Source: an uncultured Elusimicrobia bacterium | Lineage (GTDB): Bacteria > Elusimicrobiota > Elusimicrobia > Elusimicrobiales > Elusimicrobiaceae | DNA length: 42,852 nt | Assembly (NCBI GenBank): GCA_947306425.1 | Contig: CAMZGO010000011.1 | Coordinates: 1 to 42,852 of the forward strand | Direction: 5' to 3' | Shown: positions 10,108-42,723 of the stretch, piece by piece | Position numbering within the stretch: position 1 is the first letter of the stretch | Layout: every line of letters starts with the position of its first letter | Notes under the pieces: model-generated | What the model was told of the DNA's origin: nothing | What the model saw: only the letters and a program-made list of their open reading frames with translations | The model's database searches: none | Position numbers and translations under genes: made by a program

Positions 10108-11226
10108 ATGCAGGAAGTACATGATAAATTTGAAGCAACTCTCAGAACTTTACAACGCCTTGAGGGTAAAAAAGCAAAAATTAAATGTGTAGGTATCGGC
10201 GGCGGCGGTGGAAATGCTATAAATCACATGATGGAAGCAGGTATAAATGACGTTGATTTTATTGCCGTCAATACCGATGCCCAAGACTTAAGGCGGAATA
10301 AAGCACCTTATCTTTTACAAGTCGGAAATAATCTTTTAAAAGGTCTTGGTGTAGGCGGGGATCCTGAACTTGGTAAAAAAGCAGCGGAAGAATCCCTGGC
10401 AGAACTTGAGGATTTAATTATTGACACAGACCTCCTTTTTATAACTGCCGGTATGGGGGGCGGAACAGGTACAGGTGTTGCCCCTGTTTTGGCTAAAATC
10501 GCAAAAGAAAAATATAAAGATGATATTTTGGTTATCGCAGTTGTAACACGCCCTTTTACGTATGAGGGTTATACAAAAGCAAAACGCGCTCAAGACGGCA
10601 TAGATGAGTTACAAAAGTATGCTGACTGTACTTTAATCATTCCAAATGAACGCATGTTTGAAATTATAGATAAAAGTACGCCAAGTGATGTCGCTTACAG
10701 AAAAGTTGATGATGTTTTATTACAGGCCGTAAAGGGTATCTCGGAAGTAATAATAAAACCCGGGGAAATAAATATTGATTACAATGACCTAAAGAGAATA
10801 ATGTTACATTCAGGACGTGCCTTAATAGGCATCGGGGAAGCTTCTGGAAAAGACAGACATTCAGTAGCTTTAAGGCAGGCATTAACTTCGCCACTCCTTG
10901 AAAATACCAATATAACAGGGGCGAAAGGTTTGCTTGTATCTTTTAACTATTCGGGAAATATTGCTGCTTATGAAGAAGGTGAGGTTATGAACACCGTTAG
11001 GCAATATACAAGCAGTAAAGCCCTTATAAAAATAGGCAAAACACGCGATGAAAGCCTAGATAAAGATTCTTTAAAAGTTGTAGTAATTGCGGCAAATTTC
11101 CCAAAGAATTCGGAAACTAAAATGCCTCAAAAGGGACAAAAACCGGAGACCACCAGCCGATGGATTCCAATTGATTTAAGGAGAAGTTTACCCGCTATGA
11201 AGCGGCATAATCAGGAGGTAAAATAA
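10108..11226 (+). CDS. ftsZ: Cell division protein FtsZ
   Basis: FtsZ is the tubulin-like GTPase that forms the division ring. It has an N-terminal GGGGGNA nucleotide loop (about 31-37), the tubulin signature GGGTGTG (117-123) and a T7 synergy loop (NIDYNDLK). The C-terminal [10 protein letters not shown] segment probably takes the role of the conserved FtsA-binding tail. The 372-residue length is usual. A GTG at 10099 in frame overlaps the end of ftsA. I prefer the ATG at 10108, which begins one base after the ftsA stop and has a weak GGTGG ahead. The stop codon shares one base with the pilT start, indicating translational coupling. Confidence 0.97.
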
Positions 11227-12311
11227 TGGCAGTAAGTTTAAGTACACTTTTGAAAACCGTAATAGACAACAAGGCAAGTGGGTTACATATAAGAGGGAAC
11301 TCCAATGTTTTTGTTCGTATAGATGGCAAAATAAGGGCAATTGAAAATTGTTTCCTTACCAACGACGAAGTTAAAAAGATTGCAACCGCAATAATGGGTG
11401 AAAGAGAGAAAAAACTGTTTGAACAAAACCTTAGCGTTGACTTCGCTTTGGATGCAAAGGAACATGGCCGTTTTAGGTTCAATATTTACAGACAATCAGG
11501 TAAAATGTGTATGTCAATTAGGCACATACCTTTGAAAATACCTACTTTTGAAGAACTCTCTTTACCTGGCGATACCCTAACAAAAATGTCAGAAAACAGA
11601 AGGGGATTAATCTTAGTAACGGGAATGACAGGGTCAGGGAAATCCTCTACTTTAGCTGCTATGATATCAGCAGTGAACCGTACGCGTGCCTGCCATATTT
11701 TGACGGTTGAAGACCCTATAGAATTTGTTCACATGGAACAAAAAGCAATAGTAAGCCAATTATCTTTGGGAACAGATACTTTATCTTATACTTCCGCTTT
11801 ACGCTATGCTTTACGCCAAGATCCTGACGTTATCATGCTTGGTGAACTTAGAGATGTTGAAGTTATAAAAGCAGCCATTTTTGCTGCAGAAACCGGCCAC
11901 TTGGTATTTTCCACCATTCATACGGTAAGTGCTACGCAAACAATATCCCGCTTAATTGAATCTTTCCCTGCAGAACAACAAGAGCAAGTACGGGTTCAAG
12001 TGGCAGATTTGATTAAGGGCATTGTTTCCCAACGTTTAATACCTAAAACAGGAGGGGGCCTGATACCGGCTTTGGAAATTCTGCTGCCTACCGGACAAAT
12101 TAAAAGTGCCATTGAAGATAATAAATTGTCCGATATAAACAAAGCAATGCTTAACGGTGATTACTACGGAATGACAACATTTGATAAATCTCTTGCCCGT
12201 TTGCACATGGAAGGCAAAATAACATTAGAAGATGCTTTAGCAAATGCAACAATTTCTGAAACTGTCCGCCTTTTAGTTAAAGGGGCAGCCGTAGACGGGT
12301 TTAAATTATAA
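11226..12311 (+). CDS. pilT: Twitching motility ATPase PilT
   Basis: PilT is the hexameric cytoplasmic ATPase that depolymerises type IV pili. The 361-residue protein has the N-terminal PAS-like domain, GMTGSGKSS Walker A (133-141), an Asp box (EDPIEF), atypical Walker B LGELRDVE near 205 and the His box GHLVFSTIHT near 223. A C-terminal helical domain follows. AIRA, the typical PilT motif, is not obvious. PilU or another retraction paralog is possible, but PilT is the closest fit. A strong GGAGG lies inside the end of ftsZ, and the ATG overlaps the ftsZ stop by one base, so pilus retraction and division genes are in one operon. Confidence 0.9.
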   Translation: MAVSLSTLLKTVIDNKASGLHIRGNSNVFVRIDGKIRAIENCFLTNDEVKKIATAIMGEREKKLFEQNLSVDFALDAKEHGRFRFNIYRQSGKMCMSIRHIPLKIPTFEELSLPGDTLTKMSENRRGLILVTGMTGSGKSSTLAAMISAVNRTRACHILTVEDPIEFVHMEQKAIVSQLSLGTDTLSYTSALRYALRQDPDVIMLGELRDVEVIKAAIFAAETGHLVFSTIHTVSATQTISRLIESFPAEQQEQVRVQVADLIKGIVSQRLIPKTGGGLIPALEILLPTGQIKSAIEDNKLSDINKAMLNGDYYGMTTFDKSLARLHMEGKITLEDALANATISETVRLLVKGAAVDGFKL

Positions 12312-16311: not shown

Positions 16312-18363
16312 ATGAAATTGAATGATTTACTTAAAAATAAAACCATAAAAAGTTTTTTTATTTTTGCTTTTGTTATATTTTTATCTCTACCGATAATATT
16401 CCCCGAAACATCACCGTTAAAAATTATCAAGAGAGAAAATGTATTTACCCATGAGGACAGCCCCCTTCCGATTTTCCCTAAGGAAAACTTATTTAAAAAA
16501 TACGTAAACCGTGTAAAAGAGTTTTATAATTTGGAAAAAAACTCGCAAAATGATGACAAAAACACTGAAGCAAATTTTAAAACTTTTAAACAAGAAAAAG
16601 TAAAGTCAGAAAAATATGTATTTGACGAAGAAGATAATTCAGATACCGATGAGAATGATTTATTAACTTTGTATACTTTAGAAGATAATACTGACAAACA
16701 TACACATGGTACAAAAGACCCCGTGAACTTACAAGAGGGGACTGTATTAACCAAAGATAATTTATTATTAAAACCACAGGTTGACGGCTATTATTATCAG
16801 GATAATTTTTTTAAAAACGGCACTTACCCGCAATTTGCAAACAGACGATATATAGAAGGTGCTTTAAGCAAGTATCATAACAAACTCGCTGCTAACTTTG
16901 GGAAAAGAGCATTTTATTACCAAGATACAAACGGTAAATTAACCGTAAATTATGCAGATAAATTACCCAATAATTATACCGCTGAAAACATATTGTCACC
17001 CAAATCTTATGAAGATAACATATATATCGCCTTAAGTAAATTTAAAGATGCCTATGGAAAATATAAAGATGCTCATGTAAACCATCGTACTATTACAGAT
17101 TTTGATATTGCATTGGCTTCTTTGCAGGATATGCACTCTGCTTATGAATTATTAAAAGCCCAGATACAAAACGGTATGCTTGTAGATTTTATTGATGTGC
17201 AAACATTAAAAGATAAGGGCTCTGAAAATTCCGCAAGGAACTTATCTGATATAAAAGCTATTAATGATTTTTTTAATAATTCAAATAATTCCGATATTAC
17301 TATTTCCGATAAACCTGCTGTTAACAATAATAATTTAATAGCAGATACCGAGGATACCTTAACTATTGTTATGGGAGACAAAAATTTTTCTGAAGATTAT
17401 GCTTATGCCATACACGATTTGGGCTGCAGTACAGGTGAAATTTTTACCAGAAGAGAAATAAAAGAACATAATATTGCCCAAAAGATGGAGGAAAACCCTT
17501 TAATCACCATACAACTTGGAACTTGCGCCCCCCCTTTGGAAATATCACCTTCAAGTGAAATAGATACACATATTTCCCAAAGTCAAGAGGCTGAAGAATT
17601 AAAAACCCAGATAAATGCTTTGACACAAAAAAGTGCAAAAACAAAAGCAAAAATTGTATCTACAGATAGAAATATTGTCCCAATAGTAGAACAATTAAAT
17701 GATGAGCAAAGTGTAACAAACATCTACGGTAAGCCGGTTACGATTATCGCTGTCGCCCCTAAAGCTGAGGAAAGGGATTTAGCAAATACTTTAGAAAGCA
17801 TAACCAGTTCCGTAATAGAAGAAAAATCAGATGTAGAAAAACTAAACAAAACACTTTCGGAATATTATTTAACAACACAATTAAAACCAACGAATACAAT
17901 TCTAGCTTTTCCGGCAGGAGATGACAAAGTTTTTGTTGTAAATGACCCAAATAACTCTTATTGGATTAAAAACCCTAAGGAAGTTAACCAATATCCCAAG
18001 CAATACATGATAAAAAAAGGAGTATATTATGAAGGGGCAATTATTAGTAACAAAGAAGTTGGAAATATGGTAAACAAAGATAAAACAAATTTATTGCTGG
18101 TATCAGATGCAAGCGGTGAAAAAAGATTAGAAAATGGCTCTGTCTTACTAACAATAAAAGAAGATGATGTTAATATTAATTCCCTTGCCCCGCAAGCAAT
18201 AGTACAAAACACTAGTTTAATAAAACAAATTACTAAAATCGGAGATGAAACCCTTAATAGTTTAAAAAATATCATAAGAAAAAAGAAACAAGAAGAACTT
18301 AAATATTACGACCCTGAAAAGAAGAAATCTATACTAACACCAAGAATAGCAAGTAAAAAATAA
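16312..18363 (+). CDS. Membrane-anchored protein of unknown function, paralog A
   Basis: I do not recognise a family. The 683-residue protein has an N-terminal transmembrane segment (about 14-32), followed by IKRENVFTHEDSPLPIFPKE. An acidic low-complexity spacer comes next, then a domain with EGALSKYHNKLAANFGKRAFYY (about 180-205). A further spacer leads to a C-terminal domain (about 545-630) with DPNNSYWIKNPKE, YMIKKGVYYEGAI and NLLLVSDASG. Most of the chain should be extracytoplasmic. The next gene is a full-length paralog with the same three blocks. A good GGAAGG RBS precedes the ATG. The protein has few cysteines and no catalytic motif I can name. It may be a lineage-specific envelope or surface protein. 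Confidence 0.75.
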   Translation: MKLNDLLKNKTIKSFFIFAFVIFLSLPIIFPETSPLKIIKRENVFTHEDSPLPIFPKENLFKKYVNRVKEFYNLEKNSQNDDKNTEANFKTFKQEKVKSEKYVFDEEDNSDTDENDLLTLYTLEDNTDKHTHGTKDPVNLQEGTVLTKDNLLLKPQVDGYYYQDNFFKNGTYPQFANRRYIEGALSKYHNKLAANFGKRAFYYQDTNGKLTVNYADKLPNNYTAENILSPKSYEDNIYIALSKFKDAYGKYKDAHVNHRTITDFDIALASLQDMHSAYELLKAQIQNGMLVDFIDVQTLKDKGSENSARNLSDIKAINDFFNNSNNSDITISDKPAVNNNNLIADTEDTLTIVMGDKNFSEDYAYAIHDLGCSTGEIFTRREIKEHNIAQKMEENPLITIQLGTCAPPLEISPSSEIDTHISQSQEAEELKTQINALTQKSAKTKAKIVSTDRNIVPIVEQLNDEQSVTNIYGKPVTIIAVAPKAEERDLANTLESITSSVIEEKSDVEKLNKTLSEYYLTTQLKPTNTILAFPAGDDKVFVVNDPNNSYWIKNPKEVNQYPKQYMIKKGVYYEGAIISNKEVGNMVNKDKTNLLLVSDASGEKRLENGSVLLTIKEDDVNINSLAPQAIVQNTSLIKQITKIGDETLNSLKNIIRKKKQEELKYYDPEKKKSILTPRIASKK

Positions 18364-18399
18364 AATTATAAAGCTTGAGAAATATATCTTTAAAAATTC

Positions 18400-18428
18400 T
18401 TGCTAATTTAGATAATTTACTCTATAAT
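18400..18428 (+). promoter_or_regulatory. Promoter TTGCTA-17-TATAAT for the 18469 gene
   Basis: TTGCTA at 18400-18405 and TATAAT at 18423-18428 are 17 bp apart. Both this -10 and the one before the upstream paralog continue into ATATTA, so the promoter was probably duplicated along with the gene. Confidence 0.65.
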
Positions 18429-18468
18429 ATATTATAGTAGTTAGGAGATATCCGTAAGAGGTATATTT

Positions 18469-20493
18469 ATGCAGTTCAAACATCTATTTAATATCAAAAA
18501 TATCTGGCGTATGCTCATATTGGCCTTTGTAGTCTTTTTAGCATTACCCATAATCTTTCCGGAAACAGCAAATATAAGAATTATTAAAAGGGAAAACTTA
18601 TTTACCCGTGAGGACAGCCCCTTACCAATATTTCCCAAAGAAAATCTGGTCCAAAAATATCTAACCAGTCTAAAAAAATTTTACAAGATGGAAAGTCAAG
18701 ATTTCAATACTCCGGAAATGGAAGTACAAAATATTATAGAAAGAGACGAAGAAGATATAACCGCTGCCGACTTGTTTTTTACCGATGATTACGACGATGA
18801 AGATATTTCTTCTTTCGCTAATGCTTCCGTAAATGCTGATAATTCCGTTAATTTACAAAAGGGTACTGTTTTGACAAAAGACGGGCATACCTTAGAACCA
18901 ACCCAAGAAGGTTATTATAATAAAGGAAAATTTTATAAAAATGGTACTTATCCACAAAACGCCGACAAAATTGCCATTGAAGGTGCTTTAAGCCGTTACC
19001 ATAACAGTATCGCAAAAAAGTTAGGAAAAAAAGCCCTTTATTATGCCGATGACGATGGAAATCTAACTGTTGACTATATAGATAATTTACCCTATAATAT
19101 TTCTTCCGGTATTGATAATTATCTTGCAAAGAATCCTATTCAAACAAATTCAAATAACAAAAATATCAGTGGAAATAATAGTGATGTTACAGCCAAAAAT
19201 TTTAATACAAACTATGATAAGTACAGGGGCGCGCATATAAATTCATTGAATAATAAAGAAATAAAAAACTCTGATATTGCTATGGCTTCTTTAAGCAATA
19301 TGCATGCCGCATATAACTTAGTACAAAACAAAATAACGAGCGGGGAAATCGGAAAAGATATAGAAATACAAAAGCCAAACACACAAAATACCGCTTTAAA
19401 TAATTTCCTAAATAGTTCCGGAAGCACAAATATAACAATAACCACAAACCCGGAAGGTAATCAAAATGAATCTAATTATCAAGGTGACCCTGAGGAAATA
19501 TCAACTATGGTTGTAGGAGACCAAAATTTCGCACAAAATTATGCTGATGGAATTCATGAATTAAATTGTTCTAATGCAGACACTCCCACCAAAATGAATC
19601 AGGAAATACCTATTTTCGAACCTATGTTGTCTAAAATTGACAGTAACATAAATACGATAATTTGTAATCAAGCACCTTTGGTGGTAGAACAGTCTTCCTC
19701 TATAACAAATAGTTTGCCTGAAGAAACGGATTTTTATAAGTTTAAAAAAGAACTTAACAAAGTAACAAATCAAAGTAACAAAACAAATGTTAACATAATG
19801 TCTACGGATAAAAACTTTTATCCTGTGGCAACAGTACTAAATGAAGAAGGCAGTATAACCAATAGTGAAGGAAATAAAGTTACGGTATATGTTACAGGCC
19901 CTAAAGAAGGAGCTTCGGATTTAGCGGATGTATTGCAAGACATAACGTTTTCAATTACAGATGATACCAATGTCGCCAATCAATTACATGACGAACTCGC
20001 CAATTATTATGTTTTGACACAAAATCAAGATACAGATACAATAGTTGCCTTCCCTACAAAAGATGATAAAAATGTTTTTGTATTGACAGATCCAAATAAT
20101 TCTTATTGGATTAAAAACCCAAAAGAAATTGAAAAATATCCTAACCAGTACATGGTTAAAAACGGTGTGTACTACAAAGGTGCAATAGTAGATAAGAGGG
20201 CCATAGGATCAATGGTAAATGCAAGAAAAACTAATTTACTGCTTGTATCTGATGAGCAAAATACTCAATATTTACCCAATGGTTCTGTATTAGTAACGGT
20301 AGATGAAAAAGATATAAATATAAATTCTTTTGATCCAAAGATGGTTGGTAAAAATGTGGAAATGGTTAAAACTTTATCTGAAACAGGGGAAAGTCAAAAA
20401 TCAAAACAAAAAAATACAAATAAAAAACAAGATATAAATCAACAATTAACCATAAATTACGGATTGGAAAAAAACAAAAATAAAAATAAATAG
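18469..20493 (+). CDS. Membrane-anchored protein of unknown function, paralog B
   Basis: This is a tandem paralog of the preceding gene, 674 residues, and I do not recognise its family. It shares the N-terminal transmembrane segment and the RENLFTREDSPLPIFPKENL block after it. It also shares the EGALSRYHN...KALYYADDDG domain and the C-terminal DPNNSYWIKNPKE / YMVKNGVYYKGAI block. Spacer regions are Asn-, Asp- and Ser-rich and have diverged strongly, while the three blocks remain similar, so those blocks are probably folded and functional. The C-terminal 30 residues are Lys/Asn-rich. It ends seven bases before the malic enzyme gene, so read-through into metabolic genes is possible. Confidence 0.75.
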   Translation: MQFKHLFNIKNIWRMLILAFVVFLALPIIFPETANIRIIKRENLFTREDSPLPIFPKENLVQKYLTSLKKFYKMESQDFNTPEMEVQNIIERDEEDITAADLFFTDDYDDEDISSFANASVNADNSVNLQKGTVLTKDGHTLEPTQEGYYNKGKFYKNGTYPQNADKIAIEGALSRYHNSIAKKLGKKALYYADDDGNLTVDYIDNLPYNISSGIDNYLAKNPIQTNSNNKNISGNNSDVTAKNFNTNYDKYRGAHINSLNNKEIKNSDIAMASLSNMHAAYNLVQNKITSGEIGKDIEIQKPNTQNTALNNFLNSSGSTNITITTNPEGNQNESNYQGDPEEISTMVVGDQNFAQNYADGIHELNCSNADTPTKMNQEIPIFEPMLSKIDSNINTIICNQAPLVVEQSSSITNSLPEETDFYKFKKELNKVTNQSNKTNVNIMSTDKNFYPVATVLNEEGSITNSEGNKVTVYVTGPKEGASDLADVLQDITFSITDDTNVANQLHDELANYYVLTQNQDTDTIVAFPTKDDKNVFVLTDPNNSYWIKNPKEIEKYPNQYMVKNGVYYKGAIVDKRAIGSMVNARKTNLLLVSDEQNTQYLPNGSVLVTVDEKDININSFDPKMVGKNVEMVKTLSETGESQKSKQKNTNKKQDINQQLTINYGLEKNKNKNK

Positions 20494-35438: not shown

Positions 35439-35825
35439 ATGGTAAAAAAGACAGCACCCTTTGGAAGGGAAATTCTAATAACTGTTTTCTTAATTTTTTT
35501 ACTCTCAACCTTATGTGTTAAAAAAGTTAAGGATTTGAAAATAATGGCGCAGGACAGTATATCGCAAAAAAACGAGCAGATTATTCAAGAAGCCCTTGCG
35601 GTATACCGCGGTGATAATGAGGGGCGCTGCCCGATAAAACTAGCGGAATTAAAAGGCACTTATCTTGATAATTTCCCGGTAAATTATACGCAAGGCATAC
35701 CAAGCAATAAGGTAAAAGAAGGTGCAAGTTATAAAGAAGCATTTGACGGAACAGGCGGTTGGATTTACATCAATAATAAACAAGATAAGGATTATTGCGA
35801 AATATTTCCAAATATAAAGAAATAA
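35439..35825 (+). CDS. Degenerate pseudopilin-like protein
   Basis: The 128-residue protein begins FGREILITVFLIFLLSTLC, a hydrophobic helix in the position of a prepilin helix. It lacks the G-F-x-x-x-E pattern: there is no Phe at +1 and no Glu at +5. The C-terminal part resembles type II major pseudopilins, with YLDNFPVNY and a GGWIYINNKQ segment followed by a conserved Cys. It lies directly before pilD and starts one base after the M20 peptidase gene. It may be an uncleaved pseudopilin that stays in the inner membrane, perhaps as a regulator or initiator. The function is inferred from fold likeness and context only. Confidence 0.6.
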   Translation: MVKKTAPFGREILITVFLIFLLSTLCVKKVKDLKIMAQDSISQKNEQIIQEALAVYRGDNEGRCPIKLAELKGTYLDNFPVNYTQGIPSNKVKEGASYKEAFDGTGGWIYINNKQDKDYCEIFPNIKK

Positions 35826-35837
35826 GAAAGGTAATTT

Positions 35838-36614
35838 ATGGAACAATTATTTGTCTATGTACTTAGCGCGATTTTGGGCTTAATGGTGGGAAGTTTTCTT
35901 AATGTTTGTATTTACAGGATACCGGCAAATGTTTCTTTGTGGTGGCCGCCATCCACCTGCCCTAAATGCAAGACAAAGATTAAATTTTATGATAATATTC
36001 CTGTTTTAAGTTACTTAATCTTGGGCGGTAAATGCAGACAATGTAAAGAAAAAATTTCCGCACAATACCCGATAATTGAAGCGGCAACTTCCTTTTTAAC
36101 TTTAATTGTAGTTTGGAAATTCGGGTTGACTTATTGGGCTGCTGTTGCTTTGTTGGTTACTTACTGTTTATTGGTATTATCTATAATTGACTTCCAACAT
36201 TTTATTATACCTGACAGGTTTTCTCTCGGTTTAACGATTTTAGGTTTACTTGTATTTTTTATAAACCCTGCTTTTACCGGTAATATAACTGCAAAATTTA
36301 TACAGTGCTTTATAGGCGGTGCGGTGGGCTTTTTGGGGCTTTGGATGCTTGCAATTTTCGGCAGTTTGGTTTTTAAAAAGGAAGCCATGGGCGGCGGTGA
36401 TATTAAACTATTGGCAGCTGTCGGCACATTAACGGGGCTTGGCGGGGTAATTTCAACCTTAATGATTTCCTCTTTTGCGGGGCTTGTTTATTACGGAACT
36501 TTAATGCTCTTGAAGAAAAACCCTCAAGATAAAACCATTCCCTTTGGGCCCTTTATTAGTTTGGGTTTATTTGTGAATATTTTATTTCCGAACAATTTAA
36601 TGCTACTATATTAG
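35838..36614 (+). CDS. pilD: Prepilin peptidase / N-methyltransferase
   Basis: PilD cleaves prepilin leaders and methylates the new N-terminus. It would act on every pilin and pilin-like protein in this window. The 258-residue membrane protein has the N-terminal methyltransferase part with GSFLNVCIYRIP and two zinc-binding CxxC pairs (Cys41/44 and Cys66/69). The aspartyl protease pair lies in IIDFQHFIIPD (Asp126) and GGGDIK (Asp188). Eight or so transmembrane segments are evident. The substrate list is unusual for its two very large pilin-like proteins. Confidence 0.96.
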   Translation: MEQLFVYVLSAILGLMVGSFLNVCIYRIPANVSLWWPPSTCPKCKTKIKFYDNIPVLSYLILGGKCRQCKEKISAQYPIIEAATSFLTLIVVWKFGLTYWAAVALLVTYCLLVLSIIDFQHFIIPDRFSLGLTILGLLVFFINPAFTGNITAKFIQCFIGGAVGFLGLWMLAIFGSLVFKKEAMGGGDIKLLAAVGTLTGLGGVISTLMISSFAGLVYYGTLMLLKKNPQDKTIPFGPFISLGLFVNILFPNNLMLLY

Positions 36615-36615
36615 T

Positions 36616-37410
36616 ATGTTTAGGATTTTAGCAGTTATTTTGGCTGTTTTCTTGTGCCCGATACTTAGGGCAGAGGTATCTGTATTAACAAGTAATGATA
36701 CGCAGGTAAAACAACAAAGAGAGGTTATTTACCCCACACCGCAAAACCTTGCAATAGATGACGAAATGCTGCCCAGCAGTTCCACCTTATATGTTTTTGA
36801 AGTATGTGCTATCGGCAAACAAGCAATTTTGGTACAATCCCAACAGGCCCAATCTCAAAGGGGAAATAAAGGGGCAATACAACAATATAAAGTCAAAAAT
36901 TATACGCCGGTCAGAAAGTGTAAGGACTATATCGGGGCAGATACCCCGCAAGACAAACGCAATATGTTAAACATCGCCATGCGTGAAATACAAGTACCAA
37001 ACAGGGAAAGTATGTCAATGAATATTAAGGCAACTCTAGGTAACCCTAATGCAACGTTTACGGTCAAAGATAAGGCCCTTATGCCCTATACTGTTCCATA
37101 TAATGATATGCCAAAAGGCAGTGTACTTAAAAAAATTTTGGTAAACCGGGAAAAAATTAAAAAATTTTATAATTTTAATTTACCGGCCTCTGTTTATTTG
37201 GGGTCAGTTATTCAAAAACGATTTGATAATTATTTACCAATCCGCATAAGTTTTTATGAAGAAATGATTGGAAACAACCAAGCACGCAATTTTATTGTGT
37301 TTGTCTTTAATGAAGCGGAAAAATATACCTACACTCCTGCGGCAAACAATACAGCAAGCGATAAAGTCTATGATATTGAACCCGATTTTGCCGTACAATA
37401 CCTGAAATAG
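36616..37410 (+). CDS. Secreted protein of unknown function in the pilin locus
   Basis: I do not recognise a family. The 264-residue product has a clear signal peptide (about 1-19, cleavage near ILRAE). The mature part has a beta-rich middle, two cysteines spaced about 35 residues apart (VFEVCAIG and VRKCKDY), and FIVFVFNEAEKY near the C-terminus. It starts one base after the pilD stop, without a Shine-Dalgarno, so it is probably translated by coupling. It ends about 80 bp before the giant pilin-like gene, which has its own promoter. A periplasmic role in pilus or pseudopilus assembly is a guess from position. Confidence 0.6.
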   Translation: MFRILAVILAVFLCPILRAEVSVLTSNDTQVKQQREVIYPTPQNLAIDDEMLPSSSTLYVFEVCAIGKQAILVQSQQAQSQRGNKGAIQQYKVKNYTPVRKCKDYIGADTPQDKRNMLNIAMREIQVPNRESMSMNIKATLGNPNATFTVKDKALMPYTVPYNDMPKGSVLKKILVNREKIKKFYNFNLPASVYLGSVIQKRFDNYLPIRISFYEEMIGNNQARNFIVFVFNEAEKYTYTPAANNTASDKVYDIEPDFAVQYLK

Positions 37411-37424
37411 CAAATTTACAACTA

Positions 37425-37453
37425 TTGCAAAAAATAGAAAAAGAGTGTATAAT
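37425..37453 (+). promoter_or_regulatory. Promoter TTGCAA-17-TATAAT for the 37491 gene
   Basis: TTGCAA at 37425-37430 and TATAAT at 37448-37453 are 17 bp apart. The predicted leader is about 30 nt and includes GGAG before the ATG. Confidence 0.7.
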
Positions 37454-37490: not shown

Positions 37491-39902
37491 ATGAACAGCA
37501 TCTTTCGCAAGTATCGTGCCAAACGCAAAAAGGGTTTTACTCTTTTAGAAGTTTTGGTAGTTGTTGTAATCTTGGGTGTTTTAGCGACGATAGCCGTGCC
37601 CACTTACAATAAAATAGTTAGAAGGAGCCGTGTCGCAGACGGTTTAAACGTGCTTGATATGTTGGCAGGCGCGCAAGATAAGTATTTTATACAGCATGGT
37701 ATTTATGCTGCAAAATTAACGGATTTGAATATTCCGATGAAGGATTATAGGTCTGAGAATCCTCAGGCCCAATTCGCAAACATTATTACCAAAAATTTTA
37801 CTTATGATAAAATCCCTGAGAAAAATTGTATTTATGCTACTTCTAACACGGGTACGAACTATACTTTGGTTAAAAATTATAAAAGTAATGCCAAAGTACG
37901 GTGTGTAGGCGAAGGATGTAAGGACCTTACTGGCTACGTCGATGAAACTAGTGACATTGGCAGTTTGTGTCCGGCAGTTGCTTCGGGGGAGCCTCCTTGC
38001 GAAGAAGAGGAATGTCCCGAAGGGGAACATTTTGATAGTGATGCCTGTAAGTGTTTTCCAGACGCACCGCAGCCGTCTGTGCCGCCTGCTAATACCGGTT
38101 GTCCGGACGGTGGACAAGATGGCGATACAAGGCCCTATAATACCGGTGAAGCGTGTGGTGTTAAAGGTTGTTATTTATGGACCACGCAAGTTTGTAAAGA
38201 TAATGAATGGATCATTATCAAAAATATCAAACCGGAATGTAAAGATGCACAAGGGAATGCGTGTCAAGAAAACCAAGGCGGAAATTTCTGTACTGATGGG
38301 GATACACAATATGTACAAACAGAAGAAAGTTGTACAAGCAGTTCTTTAGGGCGTACAGGTGGTTTAGGTAATGCCGGAGGTGATATTAAATGTGGCATAA
38401 AATATGTACTGCAAGAATGTGTAGAAAAACAGTGGGTTAATACGGAAAAATATGATTGCCGTCAAAAAGAGTGTCAGGAAGGTGTTAATTTAGTTCTTAA
38501 TCCAGAAACTTGTGAATGTGAAAGTTATAAGGAATGTAATCCTGCTGAGATACCGGTGTGTTCCAACGGTGTAACAATTTGTGACCCTTGCCCTGAAAGC
38601 CCCAGTACTCCAAACATTATACAACAGGCCTTGGCAGGTGTCAGCGGTAATAGTAATGATAAAGGTGGTAATGACAGAGGTGCACAAACTAATCCGGAAG
38701 TATCAACAGAGTGTTTCCATTGTGGTTATAGAAATGGTAGTACTACTCCGGAATGTAACCATAGTACCGGCCGTTGGTATTGTGCAGGAGATGAAAATAC
38801 AGACTGTACTAATATCAGTGGAGGTGTTTTTGCGTATGACCCTGATAGAGGTAATTGTGACGGCAGCGGTACAGAAGGAAATGCTTGCGGCGGTTATGAA
38901 TTAACTAATATCAGATGTTTCCAAGAAATAACCGGTGGTATACCGGAGTTAAGCGCACAATATTCAGGCTCTTGTTCATTAAAGACAGGTAATGCTTGTT
39001 TTAGCGGCGAAACAAGAGAATGTACTTTGCAAGGCGGCGGTTCCGGCGTACAACAATGCAAAGACTGCCAATGGGATGAAGAATGTAATTCTACATCTAA
39101 TTGTGATCCCGGAAACAAACCTCAAGGTAATGCTTGCGGTACATATGAGTGTAATGAAACTAGTCATGCTTGGGAGTGGGTTCCTGCAAATGGCACTGTA
39201 CAATGTAACCCCGATTTAAGCAGCACACAATTGGCCGCTTTAGGTATTGAAAGTTGTAGTGCGAACTGCCAGGCCACTTGTAAGGGCGGAAGTGCATCAA
39301 CATATTATCAAGGTAAATGCTATGAGGCCTATTGGAATTCTTCATTGAATACAGCGGTTTTTGGTGATGGAAATAATCCAAAGAAAACTTTTAGAGTTTA
39401 CAACAGTGCTTGCGGTTATACAGAAAGTGGTGTCGGCAGGGGCGGTGACGGTGACGGCGGAAAAGGTGGAGGGAGAGGCGATGTTAATTTTTGCGAAGGT
39501 TGTTACACTTTATCTCAAGTCTACCAATGTACGGATAGTTGTGTCGATTGGAACCAGTCTTGTGTCCAAGATTGTTATAGTCAAATGTGCGGCGTAGATT
39601 GCCTTGGTGCTGGTGGCACTAATAACAATTCTCCAAGTACCGGGTGTCTTAATGTCAGTTGTAGCTATTTAACATCAGCCAAAAGTGTATATAATGGCAG
39701 TTGTGCTGACTATTGTAAAGGACAAACAGGTACTTACTGTCTTTCAAAGGACCGTATATATAAAGGAGCGCAGGAAAATACTTCTACGAGCTGTAATCCT
39801 AGCTATCTGCCAGGCTTTAACGTTGGTGTTTACTGGTGTCGTATAGCAGGAACAAACTCTACCGGCAGCAACAGTGGTAGTGGCACCGGTATTCAGCATT
39901 AA
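37491..39902 (+). CDS. Giant cysteine-rich prepilin-like protein, copy 1
   Basis: The 803-residue protein starts with a prepilin signal (KKG cut after Gly15, then FTLLEVLVVVVILGVLATIA, Glu20 at +5). A pilin-like domain runs to about residue 160. The remaining 640 residues are extracellular, extremely cysteine-rich and modular. A core (about 320-530) has CRQKECQEG, CDPCPESPSTPNIIQQAL, ECFHCGYRNG, GRWYCAGDEN and KTGNACFSGETRECTLQGG, and is nearly the same in copy 2. The C-terminal 270 residues are unrelated to copy 2 and include a Gly/Asp-rich linker (about 646-667). Ordinary pilins have 130-200 residues. A disulfide-stabilised tip adhesin, or a pseudopilin-displayed enzyme or binder, is possible. 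No known adhesin domain is visible. Confidence 0.85.
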   Translation: MNSIFRKYRAKRKKGFTLLEVLVVVVILGVLATIAVPTYNKIVRRSRVADGLNVLDMLAGAQDKYFIQHGIYAAKLTDLNIPMKDYRSENPQAQFANIITKNFTYDKIPEKNCIYATSNTGTNYTLVKNYKSNAKVRCVGEGCKDLTGYVDETSDIGSLCPAVASGEPPCEEEECPEGEHFDSDACKCFPDAPQPSVPPANTGCPDGGQDGDTRPYNTGEACGVKGCYLWTTQVCKDNEWIIIKNIKPECKDAQGNACQENQGGNFCTDGDTQYVQTEESCTSSSLGRTGGLGNAGGDIKCGIKYVLQECVEKQWVNTEKYDCRQKECQEGVNLVLNPETCECESYKECNPAEIPVCSNGVTICDPCPESPSTPNIIQQALAGVSGNSNDKGGNDRGAQTNPEVSTECFHCGYRNGSTTPECNHSTGRWYCAGDENTDCTNISGGVFAYDPDRGNCDGSGTEGNACGGYELTNIRCFQEITGGIPELSAQYSGSCSLKTGNACFSGETRECTLQGGGSGVQQCKDCQWDEECNSTSNCDPGNKPQGNACGTYECNETSHAWEWVPANGTVQCNPDLSSTQLAALGIESCSANCQATCKGGSASTYYQGKCYEAYWNSSLNTAVFGDGNNPKKTFRVYNSACGYTESGVGRGGDGDGGKGGGRGDVNFCEGCYTLSQVYQCTDSCVDWNQSCVQDCYSQMCGVDCLGAGGTNNNSPSTGCLNVSCSYLTSAKSVYNGSCADYCKGQTGTYCLSKDRIYKGAQENTSTSCNPSYLPGFNVGVYWCRIAGTNSTGSNSGSGTGIQH
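38971..39018 (+). repeat. 48-bp exact inverted repeat, left arm
   Basis: These 48 bases are identical to the reverse complement of 40832-40879. Both lie in the conserved core of the two giant pilin-like genes, beginning with the codons for SLKTGNACFSGETR. Recombination between the arms would invert the 1.8 kb between them and exchange the C-terminal ends of the two proteins. Confidence 0.85.
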
Positions 39903-39916
39903 AATATAGTTTAGTA

Positions 39917-39956
39917 ATATGAAACTCCCCAAGCTTGTGCTTGGGGAGTTTCATAT
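39917..39956. terminator. Long hairpin between convergent genes
   Basis: An 18-bp perfect stem with TTGT loop sits between the two converging giant pilin-like genes. There is no T run on either side, so it may stop transcription weakly or act mainly on RNA ends. Confidence 0.6.
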
Positions 39957-39980
39957 ATACAACAATATTTCCGCTAGACG

Positions 39981-42149
39981 TTAATTATTATATGGAGTAC
40001 CATTAACTGAAACACATTTAAAGAATCTGCCTTGCAGACTTTGATTGGCTTGATATTGCCCCCCGCCGGTACATCTCCCCGGATGAATATCTAGTTGCCT
40101 AACTATAATATTATTCAAAGATGCTCCATTACTTAAACAATATGCATCAGGTGTTTTATTAGTTATAGCGTATATTGGTACAGTTCCGTAATTACAAGTA
40201 GGCGAATTACAGTTATGTAATGTATAATTATCAGTGCCGCAATTCTTATATGAGCTCAGGTTAGATGTACTTGAATTAGATGGATTGTAAAAGAAACCTT
40301 TATGATTTACTGTTTCCGATTTTACACAAGCACGATGATCATCAATCCAATTTGATCCGTTGGGACATGTTATTTTGCTACATCCTGAGGAACAATGAAC
40401 GCCGGAAGGTAAAGAATCTAATAGGGAGCATCCTACATTTGGTTTATTACGGCAAGAAGACCAACTGCCGGAATTTTTATCCCAATCATATTGTTCTTGT
40501 TGCAGTTGATAATTATATTGTAAAGTACATGATGTTATATATATTTGTTCTGCACAGAAACTATCTCTGGGACAATTCTTCCTATCAGCCGTATGCACAT
40601 TTGTACAAGGTTGACCGTCAAAATCCCATACCCATCTATAGTTGGTAGAAGCGTCACACTTTGCAACGGCTATTTGGGTACCGCAATATAGTTGTGGATT
40701 GCCATTATTACAAGCTCGTTTATTACTACCTGTCGGATTTGGTGTAACAGGGCATTGTTGTAATGTACATTCATCCCATTGGCAGTTTTTACATTTTTGT
40801 ACGCCGGTGCCGCCGCTTTGTAAAGTACATGCTCTTGTTTCGCCGCTAAAACAAGCATTACCTGTCTTTAATGAACAAGAGGTTGAATATTGTGGGCTTA
40901 ATTCCGGTATACCGCCCGTTATTTCTTGCCAACATCTGACGTTAGTTAATTTATAACCTCCGCAAGCATTCCCTGCTGTGCCGTTACCGTCACAAGAACC
41001 GTTGTAAAGAGGAATACTACCGTTTATTTGTGTACACCCGACATTCTCATCACCCGCGCAATACCAGCGCCCTGTTGTATGATTACAAGTTGCCGTAGTA
41101 GCACTATTTTTATAGCCGCAATGGAAACATTCTGTAGATAAACTAGGGTTTGAGGGGTGTTCCCCTTTTTCATTTCCCCCGCCTATTTCCATTAGGGCCT
41201 GTTGTATAATATTTGGAATACTTGGGCTTTCAGGGCAAGGGTCACAAACCGTAATGCCATAGGAACAGGAAGGCTTAGTGATGGGGTCGCAATTTTTATA
41301 AGTGTCACATTCGCAGGTTTCCAGGTTAAGGACTTGTCCCGAACCTTCCCCGCATGTTTTTTGACGGCAATCATAGTTACCTGTATTAACCCAATATCCG
41401 TTTTTACAGGTTTGCTCGTCAAACCTTATTCCGCAAGTAATATAGAGTGAAGGTGTGCCGGGGGGAGTGGATTCTCCTCTATTACCGCTGCATCTTTCTC
41501 CGCTATTGACAAATCTTACGGAACCTTCTTTGCTGCAATCGTTGCCCGAAGGAACGGATGGTGTTACTGCTTGGGGTACACACTCGCATTTTACCGGATC
41601 AAGATATGAATTTTTGTGCTTTCTGCAATATTCTTCTGTTAATGTACATCCTTCCGGGGCGGCAGGACATAGGGTAGAAATTTCATCCGCCTTTTTTACT
41701 AAACCTGATATAGCATCACAACCATCGCCGACACAACGAACCTTAGCTTTAGTTTTATAATTTTTAACTAAAGTATAATTTTGTTTTGCTTTATTCGGGG
41801 TAGCATAAATACAATGTTGTAAAGGAATTTTGTTGTAAGTAAAGTGGGTGGTTATAATATCTGTGAATGAGGAACCGGGGTCTTGACCTCTTAATTCCTT
41901 TATTGGGACATTTAAATCAGTTAATCTTGCTGCATAATGTCCGTGATGAATAAAATACTTCTCTTGTGCATTTTCTAACATTTTAAGGACTTTCAGCCCA
42001 TCTGAAACGCGTCCGCGGTTAACCGCTTTGTTGTAAATAGGTGCCGCTACGGAAACTAGCACTATAAAAATAATCAGCACAGTCAATATTTCAAACAGCG
42101 TAAAGCCCTTTTTATGTTTAACACAATTTTTGTTAAACAGACTACGCAT
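39981..42149 (-). CDS. Giant cysteine-rich prepilin-like protein, copy 2
   Basis: The 722-residue paralog of the 37491 gene has the same plan. The prepilin signal (KKG, then FTLFEILTVLIIFIVLVSVA, Glu20 at +5) is followed by a pilin-like domain with YNKAVNRGRVSDGLKVLKML and the shared IYAT...NYTLVKNYK segment. The cysteine-rich core is at about 260-453 (CRQKTCGEG, CDPCPESPSIPNIIQQAL, ECFHCGYKNS, KTGNACFSGETRACTLQSG). From the QWDEC motif on, the 270-residue C-terminal part is unlike copy 1 but equally rich in Cys, Asn and aromatic residues. The hydrophobic helix has more Phe and Ile than the other pilins. GGAGG precedes the ATG. Confidence 0.85.
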   Translation of the reverse strand: MRSLFNKNCVKHKKGFTLFEILTVLIIFIVLVSVAAPIYNKAVNRGRVSDGLKVLKMLENAQEKYFIHHGHYAARLTDLNVPIKELRGQDPGSSFTDIITTHFTYNKIPLQHCIYATPNKAKQNYTLVKNYKTKAKVRCVGDGCDAISGLVKKADEISTLCPAAPEGCTLTEEYCRKHKNSYLDPVKCECVPQAVTPSVPSGNDCSKEGSVRFVNSGERCSGNRGESTPPGTPSLYITCGIRFDEQTCKNGYWVNTGNYDCRQKTCGEGSGQVLNLETCECDTYKNCDPITKPSCSYGITVCDPCPESPSIPNIIQQALMEIGGGNEKGEHPSNPSLSTECFHCGYKNSATTATCNHTTGRWYCAGDENVGCTQINGSIPLYNGSCDGNGTAGNACGGYKLTNVRCWQEITGGIPELSPQYSTSCSLKTGNACFSGETRACTLQSGGTGVQKCKNCQWDECTLQQCPVTPNPTGSNKRACNNGNPQLYCGTQIAVAKCDASTNYRWVWDFDGQPCTNVHTADRKNCPRDSFCAEQIYITSCTLQYNYQLQQEQYDWDKNSGSWSSCRNKPNVGCSLLDSLPSGVHCSSGCSKITCPNGSNWIDDHRACVKSETVNHKGFFYNPSNSSTSNLSSYKNCGTDNYTLHNCNSPTCNYGTVPIYAITNKTPDAYCLSNGASLNNIIVRQLDIHPGRCTGGGQYQANQSLQGRFFKCVSVNGTPYNN
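40832..40879 (-). repeat. 48-bp exact inverted repeat, right arm
   Basis: Partner of 38971-39018, in the core of the minus-strand giant pilin-like gene. Similarity continues on both sides with scattered differences. Confidence 0.85.
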
Positions 42150-42187: not shown

Positions 42188-42216
42188 ATTATACCCACTT
42201 TTTTAACTTTTTACAA
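42188..42216 (-). promoter_or_regulatory. Promoter TTGTAA-17-TATAAT for giant pilin copy 2
   Basis: On the minus strand TTGTAA (42211-42216) and TATAAT (42188-42193) are 17 bp apart, about 38 bases before the ATG. The -35 lies in an inverted repeat: TTACAAC (42211-42217) pairs with GTTGTAA (42224-42230), which could be an operator. Confidence 0.65.
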
Positions 42217-42282: not shown

Positions 42283-42445
42283 TTAAAAAATATTGCCGAT
42301 ATGCAAGTGGCACCGGTGTATTTATTCAGCGGGGATGATGTCTTTAGAAAAAAGGAAATAACCAAAAAAATTATTTCAACTTTAAAAATTGATGAGTTTA
42401 ATTTGACACAAGAGGATTGCCAACAAAGCAAGGAAATAGGGGAAA
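42283..42445 (+). pseudogene. holA N-terminal fragment (duplicate)
   Basis: This segment matches the minus strand of 2034-2197 almost exactly: one GTA to GTG change and two A fewer in an A run are seen by eye. It encodes holA residues from about IADMQVAPVYLFSGDD to KEIGE, without the original start codons, and then breaks into an unrelated fragment. It cannot make a delta subunit. Together with the next entry it is the remains of an inverted copy of the window's beginning. Confidence 0.85.
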
Positions 42446-42723
42446 GCAATTAAAAGTGCTTTATAATTTTCTGCTTCTTTTAAAATAATTTCAATAGGGG
42501 GAATATTTTCAACATTAAAAGATGTTTTAGGTTTTTGCGGAACAACTATGCTTTTTTGGTCAAAATTTTTTTGCGTTATGTAGACATTACCGATAATTAC
42601 CCCGGCTATAAAAAGTACCAAAATTATAAACAAACGTAAGATATTTGCCGTACATAAATTATACCAAAAAATTATTTTTAGGATTATATTCATAGGGTTA
42701 ATATGTAAAATTGTTGGTATTAA
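42444..42723 (-). pseudogene. Fragment of the 678-1214 gene (duplicate)
   Basis: It matches 607-885 with about seven substitutions in 279 bases. The start ATG has become ACG, although the TATAAT is kept. The reading frame stays open through the membrane anchor and up to KALLIA, then runs into the holA fragment. The order (holA piece, then this piece, both reversed relative to the original) is that of one inverted copy with 886-2033 deleted. The joint at 42444-42445 shares only two A. Confidence 0.85.

What the first reader, a model, noticed from the sequence alone, without database searches (positions are those of the whole stretch)
37491..42149. Convergent pair of giant cysteine-rich prepilins with shared core and different C-terminal ends
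Two proteins of 803 and 722 residues keep a processed pilin N-terminus and a nearly identical Cys-rich core, but their last 270 residues are unrelated. They are the reverse of normal small pilins and are placed tail to tail next to pilD. This looks like a pilus- or pseudopilus-displayed, disulfide-rich surface module with exchangeable ends. I know of no named system with this layout. The pilin part follows from the class III signal. The display role is inference.
Basis: partly seen in the sequence, partly recalled or inferred. Interest (0 to 1): 0.7.

Follow-up and report, generated by a model that had tools for sequence, protein, structure and literature searches.

The report
Giant cysteine-rich modular pilins, Elusimicrobiota
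Two very large, cysteine-packed pilus subunits sit tail to tail in a gut Elusimicrobiota genome; they belong to a genus-specific set of giant pilins (up to 2,285 residues) whose shared parts are kept alike within each genome while their outer ends differ, probably to display different surface-binding modules.

Summary
The two genes are real, intact prepilins of 803 and 722 residues. In both, residues 16-160 are predicted to have a complete type IV pilin fold, followed by 540-640 residues with about 9% Cys that match no known family. Core identity is 70% at best, with an 88%-identical 231-nt stretch at the core/tail border. The 'unrelated tails' are unrelated to each other, but each has a homologue in another species. 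The core family occurs in 5 of 341 Elusimicrobiota genomes, all in one genus, at one fixed locus after pilD, in 1-3 copies. The genus carries further giant Cys-rich prepilins at other fixed loci (303 to 2,285 aa). In two species pairs the pilin and core segments group by genome while the tails group by orthologue, the signature of within-genome gene conversion (or recent tail exchange). All seven copies at this locus have an even number of mature cysteines (54-82), which fits full disulfide pairing. Best reading: modular minor pilins presenting disulfide-rich binding modules, most likely at the tip of a PilT-retractable type IV pilus. This is a new, extreme variant of the known 'modular pilin' kind. 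Assembly, location, disulfides and ligand are inferred, not shown.

The parts
37491..39902 (+). giant prepilin 803: leader, pilin module (res 16-160), Cys-rich core (to res 528), tail type B (res 529-803)
39981..42149 (-). giant prepilin 722: leader, pilin module (res 16-160), Cys-rich core (to res 458), tail type A (res 459-722)
37794..39074 (+). end of pilin module plus Cys-rich core of 803, used as the family profile (A2)
40776..41846 (-). the same region of 722
39075..39899 (+). tail of 803, homologous to the tail of G002_a
39984..40775 (-). tail of 722, homologous to the tails of G002_b and G002_c
38850..39080 (+). arm 1 of the 231-nt inverted repeat at the core/tail border (204/231 identical to arm 2, 50 nt exact run, same codon register)
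40770..41000 (-). arm 2 of the 231-nt inverted repeat
39917..39956 (.). perfect 18-bp hairpin with 4-nt loop between the two genes, probable shared bidirectional terminator
   Evidence: z -8.3
37425..37453 (+). sigma-70-like promoter match upstream of 803 (10 of 12); consensus match only
42188..42216 (-). sigma-70-like promoter match upstream of 722 (10 of 12); consensus match only
35838..36614 (+). pilD, prepilin peptidase (A24_N_bact + Peptidase_A24)
36616..37410 (+). conserved 264-aa exported protein of unknown family between pilD and the giants, syntenic in relatives
11226..12311 (+). PilT-type ATPase (T2SSE family), the likely pilus retraction motor

Best explanation
The two genes encode modular type IV minor pilins. 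PilD cuts the leader after Gly15 (inferred from the motif). Residues 16-160 form a complete pilin module that inserts into a type IV filament (fold predicted, assembly inferred). The remaining 540-640 residues are chains of small disulfide-locked modules, displayed outside the cell (inferred), most likely at the filament tip because such bulk would not fit along the shaft. The core acts as a shared stalk and the C-terminal tails are the part that meets different ligands (plant fibre, mucin, other cells) in the gut (inferred). Gene conversion keeps pilin and core alike within a genome while tails stay distinct (supported by comparative sequence). Retraction by PilT would pull the bound object towards the cell.
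For: Prepilin motif in both. AlphaFold models put residues 16-160 on type IV pilins: Foldseek's best hit is PilE 1ay2 for the 722 (prob 1.00, E 0.015), and VIA-align puts pilins and pseudopilins in ranks 1-18 (803) and 1-19 (722) at Z 3.7-7.9, with other folds at 3.9 or below. Profile hits in the PDB are all pilins or pseudopilins. First mature Cys at position 98, so the assembly helix is Cys-free. All 7 giants at this locus have even mature Cys counts (64, 54, 66, 54, 80, 74, 82). Columns with a Cys are identical 32/35 in the own pair against 239/421 elsewhere. The genome has PilB-PilC-secretin beside a prepilin cluster and two PilT-type ATPases. Gene conversion: in G017/G015 columns 51-200, 43 sites group paralogues and 1 groups orthologues; from column 251 on, 4 and 59; ML trees pair paralogues in the pilin and core segments. 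Precedent: S. sanguinis PilB, a modular pilin adhesin (PMC8179133).
Against: No match of the Cys-rich part to any known binding domain, and no confident structure for it (pLDDT under 50 over most of the core and tail). No DsbA, DsbB or VKOR family hit in the genome, so the oxidant is unknown. A Tad-type locus also exists (CpaF-like ATPase), and the PilB/PilC/secretin set could belong to a type II secretion system, so the filament that carries the giants is not certain. No expression or surface data.
Confidence: 0.6

Rival explanations
1. They are pseudopilin-like subunits of a type II secretion system, or membrane-anchored prepilins never built into a filament, with the Cys-rich part working in the periplasm or at the outer membrane.
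For: The best NCBIfam match of both is GspG (below cut-off). The PilB/PilC/secretin cluster alone does not separate T4P from T2SS.
Against: Two PilT-type ATPases point to retractable pili, and about 106 other prepilins point to pilus biology. Structural matches are led by T4P pilins (Z 7.5-7.9), with pseudopilins below (PulG 5.5, Xcp 3.7).
Confidence: 0.22
2. The giants are DNA receptors for natural transformation (ComP-like minor pilins).
For: Weak ComP_DUS match in the pilin module of most giants, over the cut-off only in G005.
Against: The ComP hit covers the generic pilin fold. The part after the pilin module is acidic in all seven copies at this locus (net -4 to -61), unlike a DNA-binding surface. 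The size is not explained.
Confidence: 0.06
3. Phase or antigenic variation: the convergent pair is an inversion switch whose tails swap between two pilins, as in PilV shufflons.
For: Convergent copies; a 231-nt inverted repeat at the core/tail border, 88% identical with a 50-nt exact run and the same codon register, so a crossover there would swap tails in frame. Four-fold sites are more alike there (19/28) than in the pilin module (10/35; Fisher p 0.0025).
Against: Repeats are not identical and I saw no site-specific recombinase gene near them in the window. G002 has three copies head to tail, so inversion is impossible there. Both own genes are complete and each has a promoter-like match. 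No reads were available.
Confidence: 0.1
4. Pseudogene, assembly or composition artefact.
For: The contig end just beyond the 722 gene (42285-42723) is an inverted partial copy of the contig start.
Against: Frames are open in seven full copies and synteny is conserved in five genomes; Cys positions are conserved and silent sites are near saturation.
Confidence: 0.02

Closest known systems
Modular type IV pilins (PilB and PilC of Streptococcus sanguinis; census in PMC8179133)
   Same: N-terminal class III signal and complete pilin module with a bulky module fused C-terminally; expected at the filament tip; adhesive role in the studied case.
   Different: Extra part here is 540-640 residues (up to about 2,100 in relatives), 7-12% Cys, and of no known domain; the most extreme multi-domain case named in that census is an 860-residue protein. 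Here several copies share pilin and core by conversion and differ in tails, and all are in one genus.
PilV minor pilins of IncI plasmids with shufflon (PMC9045228, PMC5430464)
   Same: Minor pilin with a constant N-terminal part and alternative C-terminal ends.
   Different: Shufflons use a recombinase (Rci) and multiple short inverted sites around one gene; here two full genes, no recombinase seen near them in the window, diverged repeats, tails kept apart between species.
Neisseria pilE/pilS antigenic variation
   Same: Gene conversion between pilin genes within a genome.
   Different: There conversion diversifies one expressed pilin; here it appears to homogenise the display module while the ends stay different. 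The Neisseria side is general knowledge; one search lists papers.
GspK/CofB-type large minor pilins
   Same: Larger than major pilins, proposed at the filament tip (as described in PMC8179133).
   Different: No sequence match found here to either; much smaller than these giants (general knowledge).

Membership tests
type IV pilin superfamily (prepilins) | class III leader G^[FY]xxxE followed by a hydrophobic helix | tested here: met
   Both giants; AlphaFold helix 18-69
type IV pilin superfamily (prepilins) | alpha1 plus antiparallel beta-sheet pilin fold | tested here: met
   Predicted models, residues 16-160 against PilE: Z 7.5-7.9, 129-130 residues aligned; ranks 1-18 and 1-19 are pilins or pseudopilins
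type IV pilin superfamily (prepilins) | cleaved by PilD and built into a filament | not testable with these tools
   pilD is 877 nt upstream of the 803 gene; cleavage and assembly not observable
modular pilins (PMC8179133) | pilin module plus a grafted C-terminal module that is not part of the pilin | tested here: met
   640 and 560 residues beyond the pilin fold
modular pilins (PMC8179133) | grafted module has a defined domain with a function | tested here: inconclusive
   No domain match except a 13-residue CXCXC repeat just above its cut-off; a domain unlike known ones is not excluded
PilV shufflon | invertible segments with a dedicated site-specific recombinase | tested here: inconclusive
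   No recombinase recognised by inspection of the window ORFs (not all were family-scanned); one inverted repeat of 88%; no reads to see inversion
ComP DNA-uptake receptor | ComP_DUS domain over cut-off | tested here: not met
   Own proteins 23.4 and 19.6 bits against 27.3; one relative (G005) 28.1
GspG major pseudopilin | TIGR01710 over cut-off | tested here: not met
   38.2 and 30.2 bits against 88.85

The most novel reading that the evidence does not exclude
A pilus-display system in which homologous recombination between paralogous giant pilins keeps the assembly module and stalk uniform while shuffling a repertoire of C-terminal binding modules between copies, without a dedicated recombinase: a recombination-driven set of pilus tips in one gut bacterial genus, with in-frame tail exchange possible in the convergent pair through its 231-nt inverted repeat.
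Probability: 0.13. Interest if true: 0.82.

Novelty: new variant of a known kind. Interest (0 to 1): 0.62.

Why it matters
Modular pilins are usually one-off fusions to known domains. Here one genus carries a family of giant prepilins (to 2,285 residues) with undescribed disulfide-type modules and concerted evolution of the constant part. If displayed, these are exceptionally large pilus subunits and a source of new small cysteine-rich binding folds. They would also pose a testable question: how an anaerobe with no recognisable DsbA, DsbB or VKOR oxidises proteins with more than 50 cysteines. Elusimicrobiota have no flagella, isolates are described as non-motile, and pilins are the only cell appendages encoded in the family Endomicrobiaceae (PMC11257099), so pili are a main candidate for how members of the phylum hold on in the gut.

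Tried and rejected
Pfam, NCBIfam, PHROGs and PDB sequence searches of the Cys-rich parts: nothing but a 13-residue CXCXC repeat. Plasmid and phage collections: no match to the core, so no sign of a plasmid or phage cargo. Profile of the type A tails against type B tails: 803 scores above 500 Cys-fixed shuffles but at negative bits, and G002_a does not stand out, so homology of the two tail types is inconclusive. AlphaFold on full lengths with 7 sequences gave pLDDT under 50 for most of the core and tails; fold matches outside residues 12-160 are not informative. The AU topology test did not print from IQ-TREE, so I rely on ML trees and site counts. PADLOC not run: nothing suggested defence. 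Herlemann 2009 (E. minutum genome) is not held, so earlier remarks on pilin number in this phylum could not be checked. Parity over all 24 large prepilins is 16 even, 8 odd; it is consistent within each locus family rather than independent evidence in every protein.

Full report
Observation. The window is contig C11 of a 1.44-Mb, 99% complete genome whose nearest named relatives are Elusimicrobiaceae MAGs, one of them from water-buffalo rumen. ORFs 37491-39902 (+) and 39981-42149 (-) encode 803 and 722 residues. They converge on a 78-nt gap that holds a perfect 18-bp hairpin (39917-39956; fold z -8.3), probably a shared terminator. Each gene has a promoter-like match upstream, and Shine-Dalgarno-like sequences are visible (GGAG, GAGGAGGTGAT). 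The genome holds 108 N_methyl matches; nearly all others lie in frames of 140-241 codons, so the two giants are clear outliers.

Anatomy. Leader of 15 residues ending in KKG, then FTLLE/FTLFE. AlphaFold models (7-sequence alignments) give pLDDT of mostly 65-83 for residues 20-80 and 100-165: a 52-residue helix and a beta-sheet. Foldseek's best hit for the 722 model is gonococcal PilE 1ay2. VIA-align gives Z 7.5 (803) and 7.9 (722) over 129-130 residues, with the next 17-18 rows all pilins or pseudopilins. So a full pilin ends near residue 160 and everything after it is additional. That part has about 9% Cys, no Pfam domain other than a 13-residue CXCXC repeat, no NCBIfam, PHROG or PDB match, and most of it has no confident predicted structure.

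Relatives. Searching the core in the genus gave G002, G005 and G012, and the profile added G014. Over 341 genomes of the phylum only these five, all in one genus of 18 sampled species, have it. The locus is conserved: amidase, 243-aa protein, 410-aa peptidase, 127-aa protein, pilD, ~265-aa exported protein, then one (G005, G012), two (own) or three (G002) giants of 658-953 aa; in G002, G005 and G012 infC and rplT follow. In G014 the locus is split over two contigs, a frame beside pilD and a pilin beside infC/rplT. Copy order and orientation differ: convergent in own, head to tail in G002.

A wider set. Searching the giant pilin module in the family showed more large prepilins at other fixed places in the same genus: after rnc and a 486-aa protein, and before lipA, frames of 2,285, 1,860 and 1,592 aa plus two cut off by contig ends; between frr and uppS, 490 and 489 aa; a 300-aa type; beside hisS, 506, 445 and 570 aa. 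All have 5-12% Cys and only pilin-type Pfam matches worth naming among those scanned. Of the listed rows, 17 of 18 genus members have a matching frame of 300 codons or more and the other genera show none (largest 293); the list was cut, so this is not a full census. G017 has only 18 prepilins, four of them large. Gene names here (rnc, lipA, frr, uppS, hisS, infC, rplT) are my reading of the translations.

How the set evolves. For G017 (490 and 303 aa, about 386 kb apart) and G015 (489 and 297 aa), codon columns 51-200 hold 43 sites that group the two copies of one genome and 1 that groups orthologues. From column 251 on it is 4 against 59, and within-genome identity falls from 86-100% to under 50% while orthologues stay 79-98%. 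The ML tree of columns 41-205 pairs copies within genomes. At the locus in question, core identity is 70% within own but 33-48% to other genomes, and G002_a/b pilin modules are 74% alike against 53-58% to own; yet tails match across species (803 with G002_a; 722 with G002_b and G002_c) and not each other. In the own pair, identity climbs to 88% over 231 nt right at the core/tail border (50 nt exact, same codon register) and then stops; four-fold sites there are more alike than in the pilin module (19/28 against 10/35, p 0.0025), which selection on protein alone would not give. The simplest account is interlocus gene conversion of the constant parts with long-kept tail types; recent duplication with tail exchange at the border is the alternative.

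Cysteines. Mature Cys counts at this locus are 64, 54, 66, 54, 80, 74 and 82, all even (chance 1 in 128 if independent; the copies are related, so this is only suggestive). Parity is also constant within the other locus types, odd in the 2,285-aa and 300-aa types. Gain and loss of Cys in pairs fits disulfides. No DSBA, DsbB or VKOR match was found in the genome; an unlisted thioredoxin-fold oxidant is possible.

Mechanism. The genome has a PilB-type ATPase with MshEN domain, PilC, secretin and several prepilins together on C9, two PilT-type ATPases (one in the window at 11226-12311), and a separate CpaE/CpaF-like Tad locus on C3. I conclude that the giants are modular minor pilins (0.6): cleavage, assembly, tip position, adhesion and disulfides are inferred from these families and from S. 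sanguinis PilB (PMC8179133). Rivals are pseudopilins or unassembled prepilins (0.22), a tail-swapping switch (0.1) and DNA receptors (0.06).

Known or new. The kind, modular pilin, is known: more than 1,200 proteins and 264 architectures, with an 860-residue protein as the most extreme multi-domain case named. New here are the size range, the undescribed Cys-rich modules, restriction of this core to one genus, and concerted evolution of the constant part with divergent ends. I did not search all bacteria for longer prepilins.

Noticed in passing
window 42285-42723: Contig end is an inverted partial copy of the contig start: 42285-42445 matches 2031-2191 (99.4%) and 42444-42723 matches 606-885 (97.5%), with the 1.1 kb between left out; a rearrangement, strain mixture or assembly artefact. 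infC/rplT synteny seen in relatives is lost here.
   Followed up: partly
G000, whole genome: About 108 prepilin N_methyl signals in a 1.44-Mb genome, nearly all in small frames, against 18 in the same-genus genome G017: an extreme and variable pilin expansion.
   Followed up: partly
L126:6390-13247, L129:5534-11116, L130:5588-10366: Prepilins of 2,285, 1,860 and 1,592 residues between a 486-aa (474 in G013) gene after rnc and lipA, with many tandem CTN...GKYWTGHGGTS...C repeats.
   Followed up: partly
window 36616-37410: Conserved exported 264-aa protein of no known family, always between pilD and the giants; a candidate partner.
   Followed up: no
window 35439-35825: 128-aa pseudopilin-like protein before pilD whose N-terminus (FGREILITVFLIF) lacks a canonical prepilin site; syntenic in relatives.
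   Followed up: no
G000, whole genome: No DSBA, DsbB or VKOR match despite proteins with more than 50 exported cysteines.
   Followed up: partly
L072:6227-6724: IS200-type transposase (Y1_Tnp) next to the giant of G012.
   Followed up: no
L070:15992-18847: AIDA-type autotransporter adhesin beyond rplT in G002.
   Followed up: no
window 16312-20493: Two tandem related proteins (683 and 674 aa) with similar N-termini and shared internal stretches such as GTVLTKD; family unknown.
   Followed up: no
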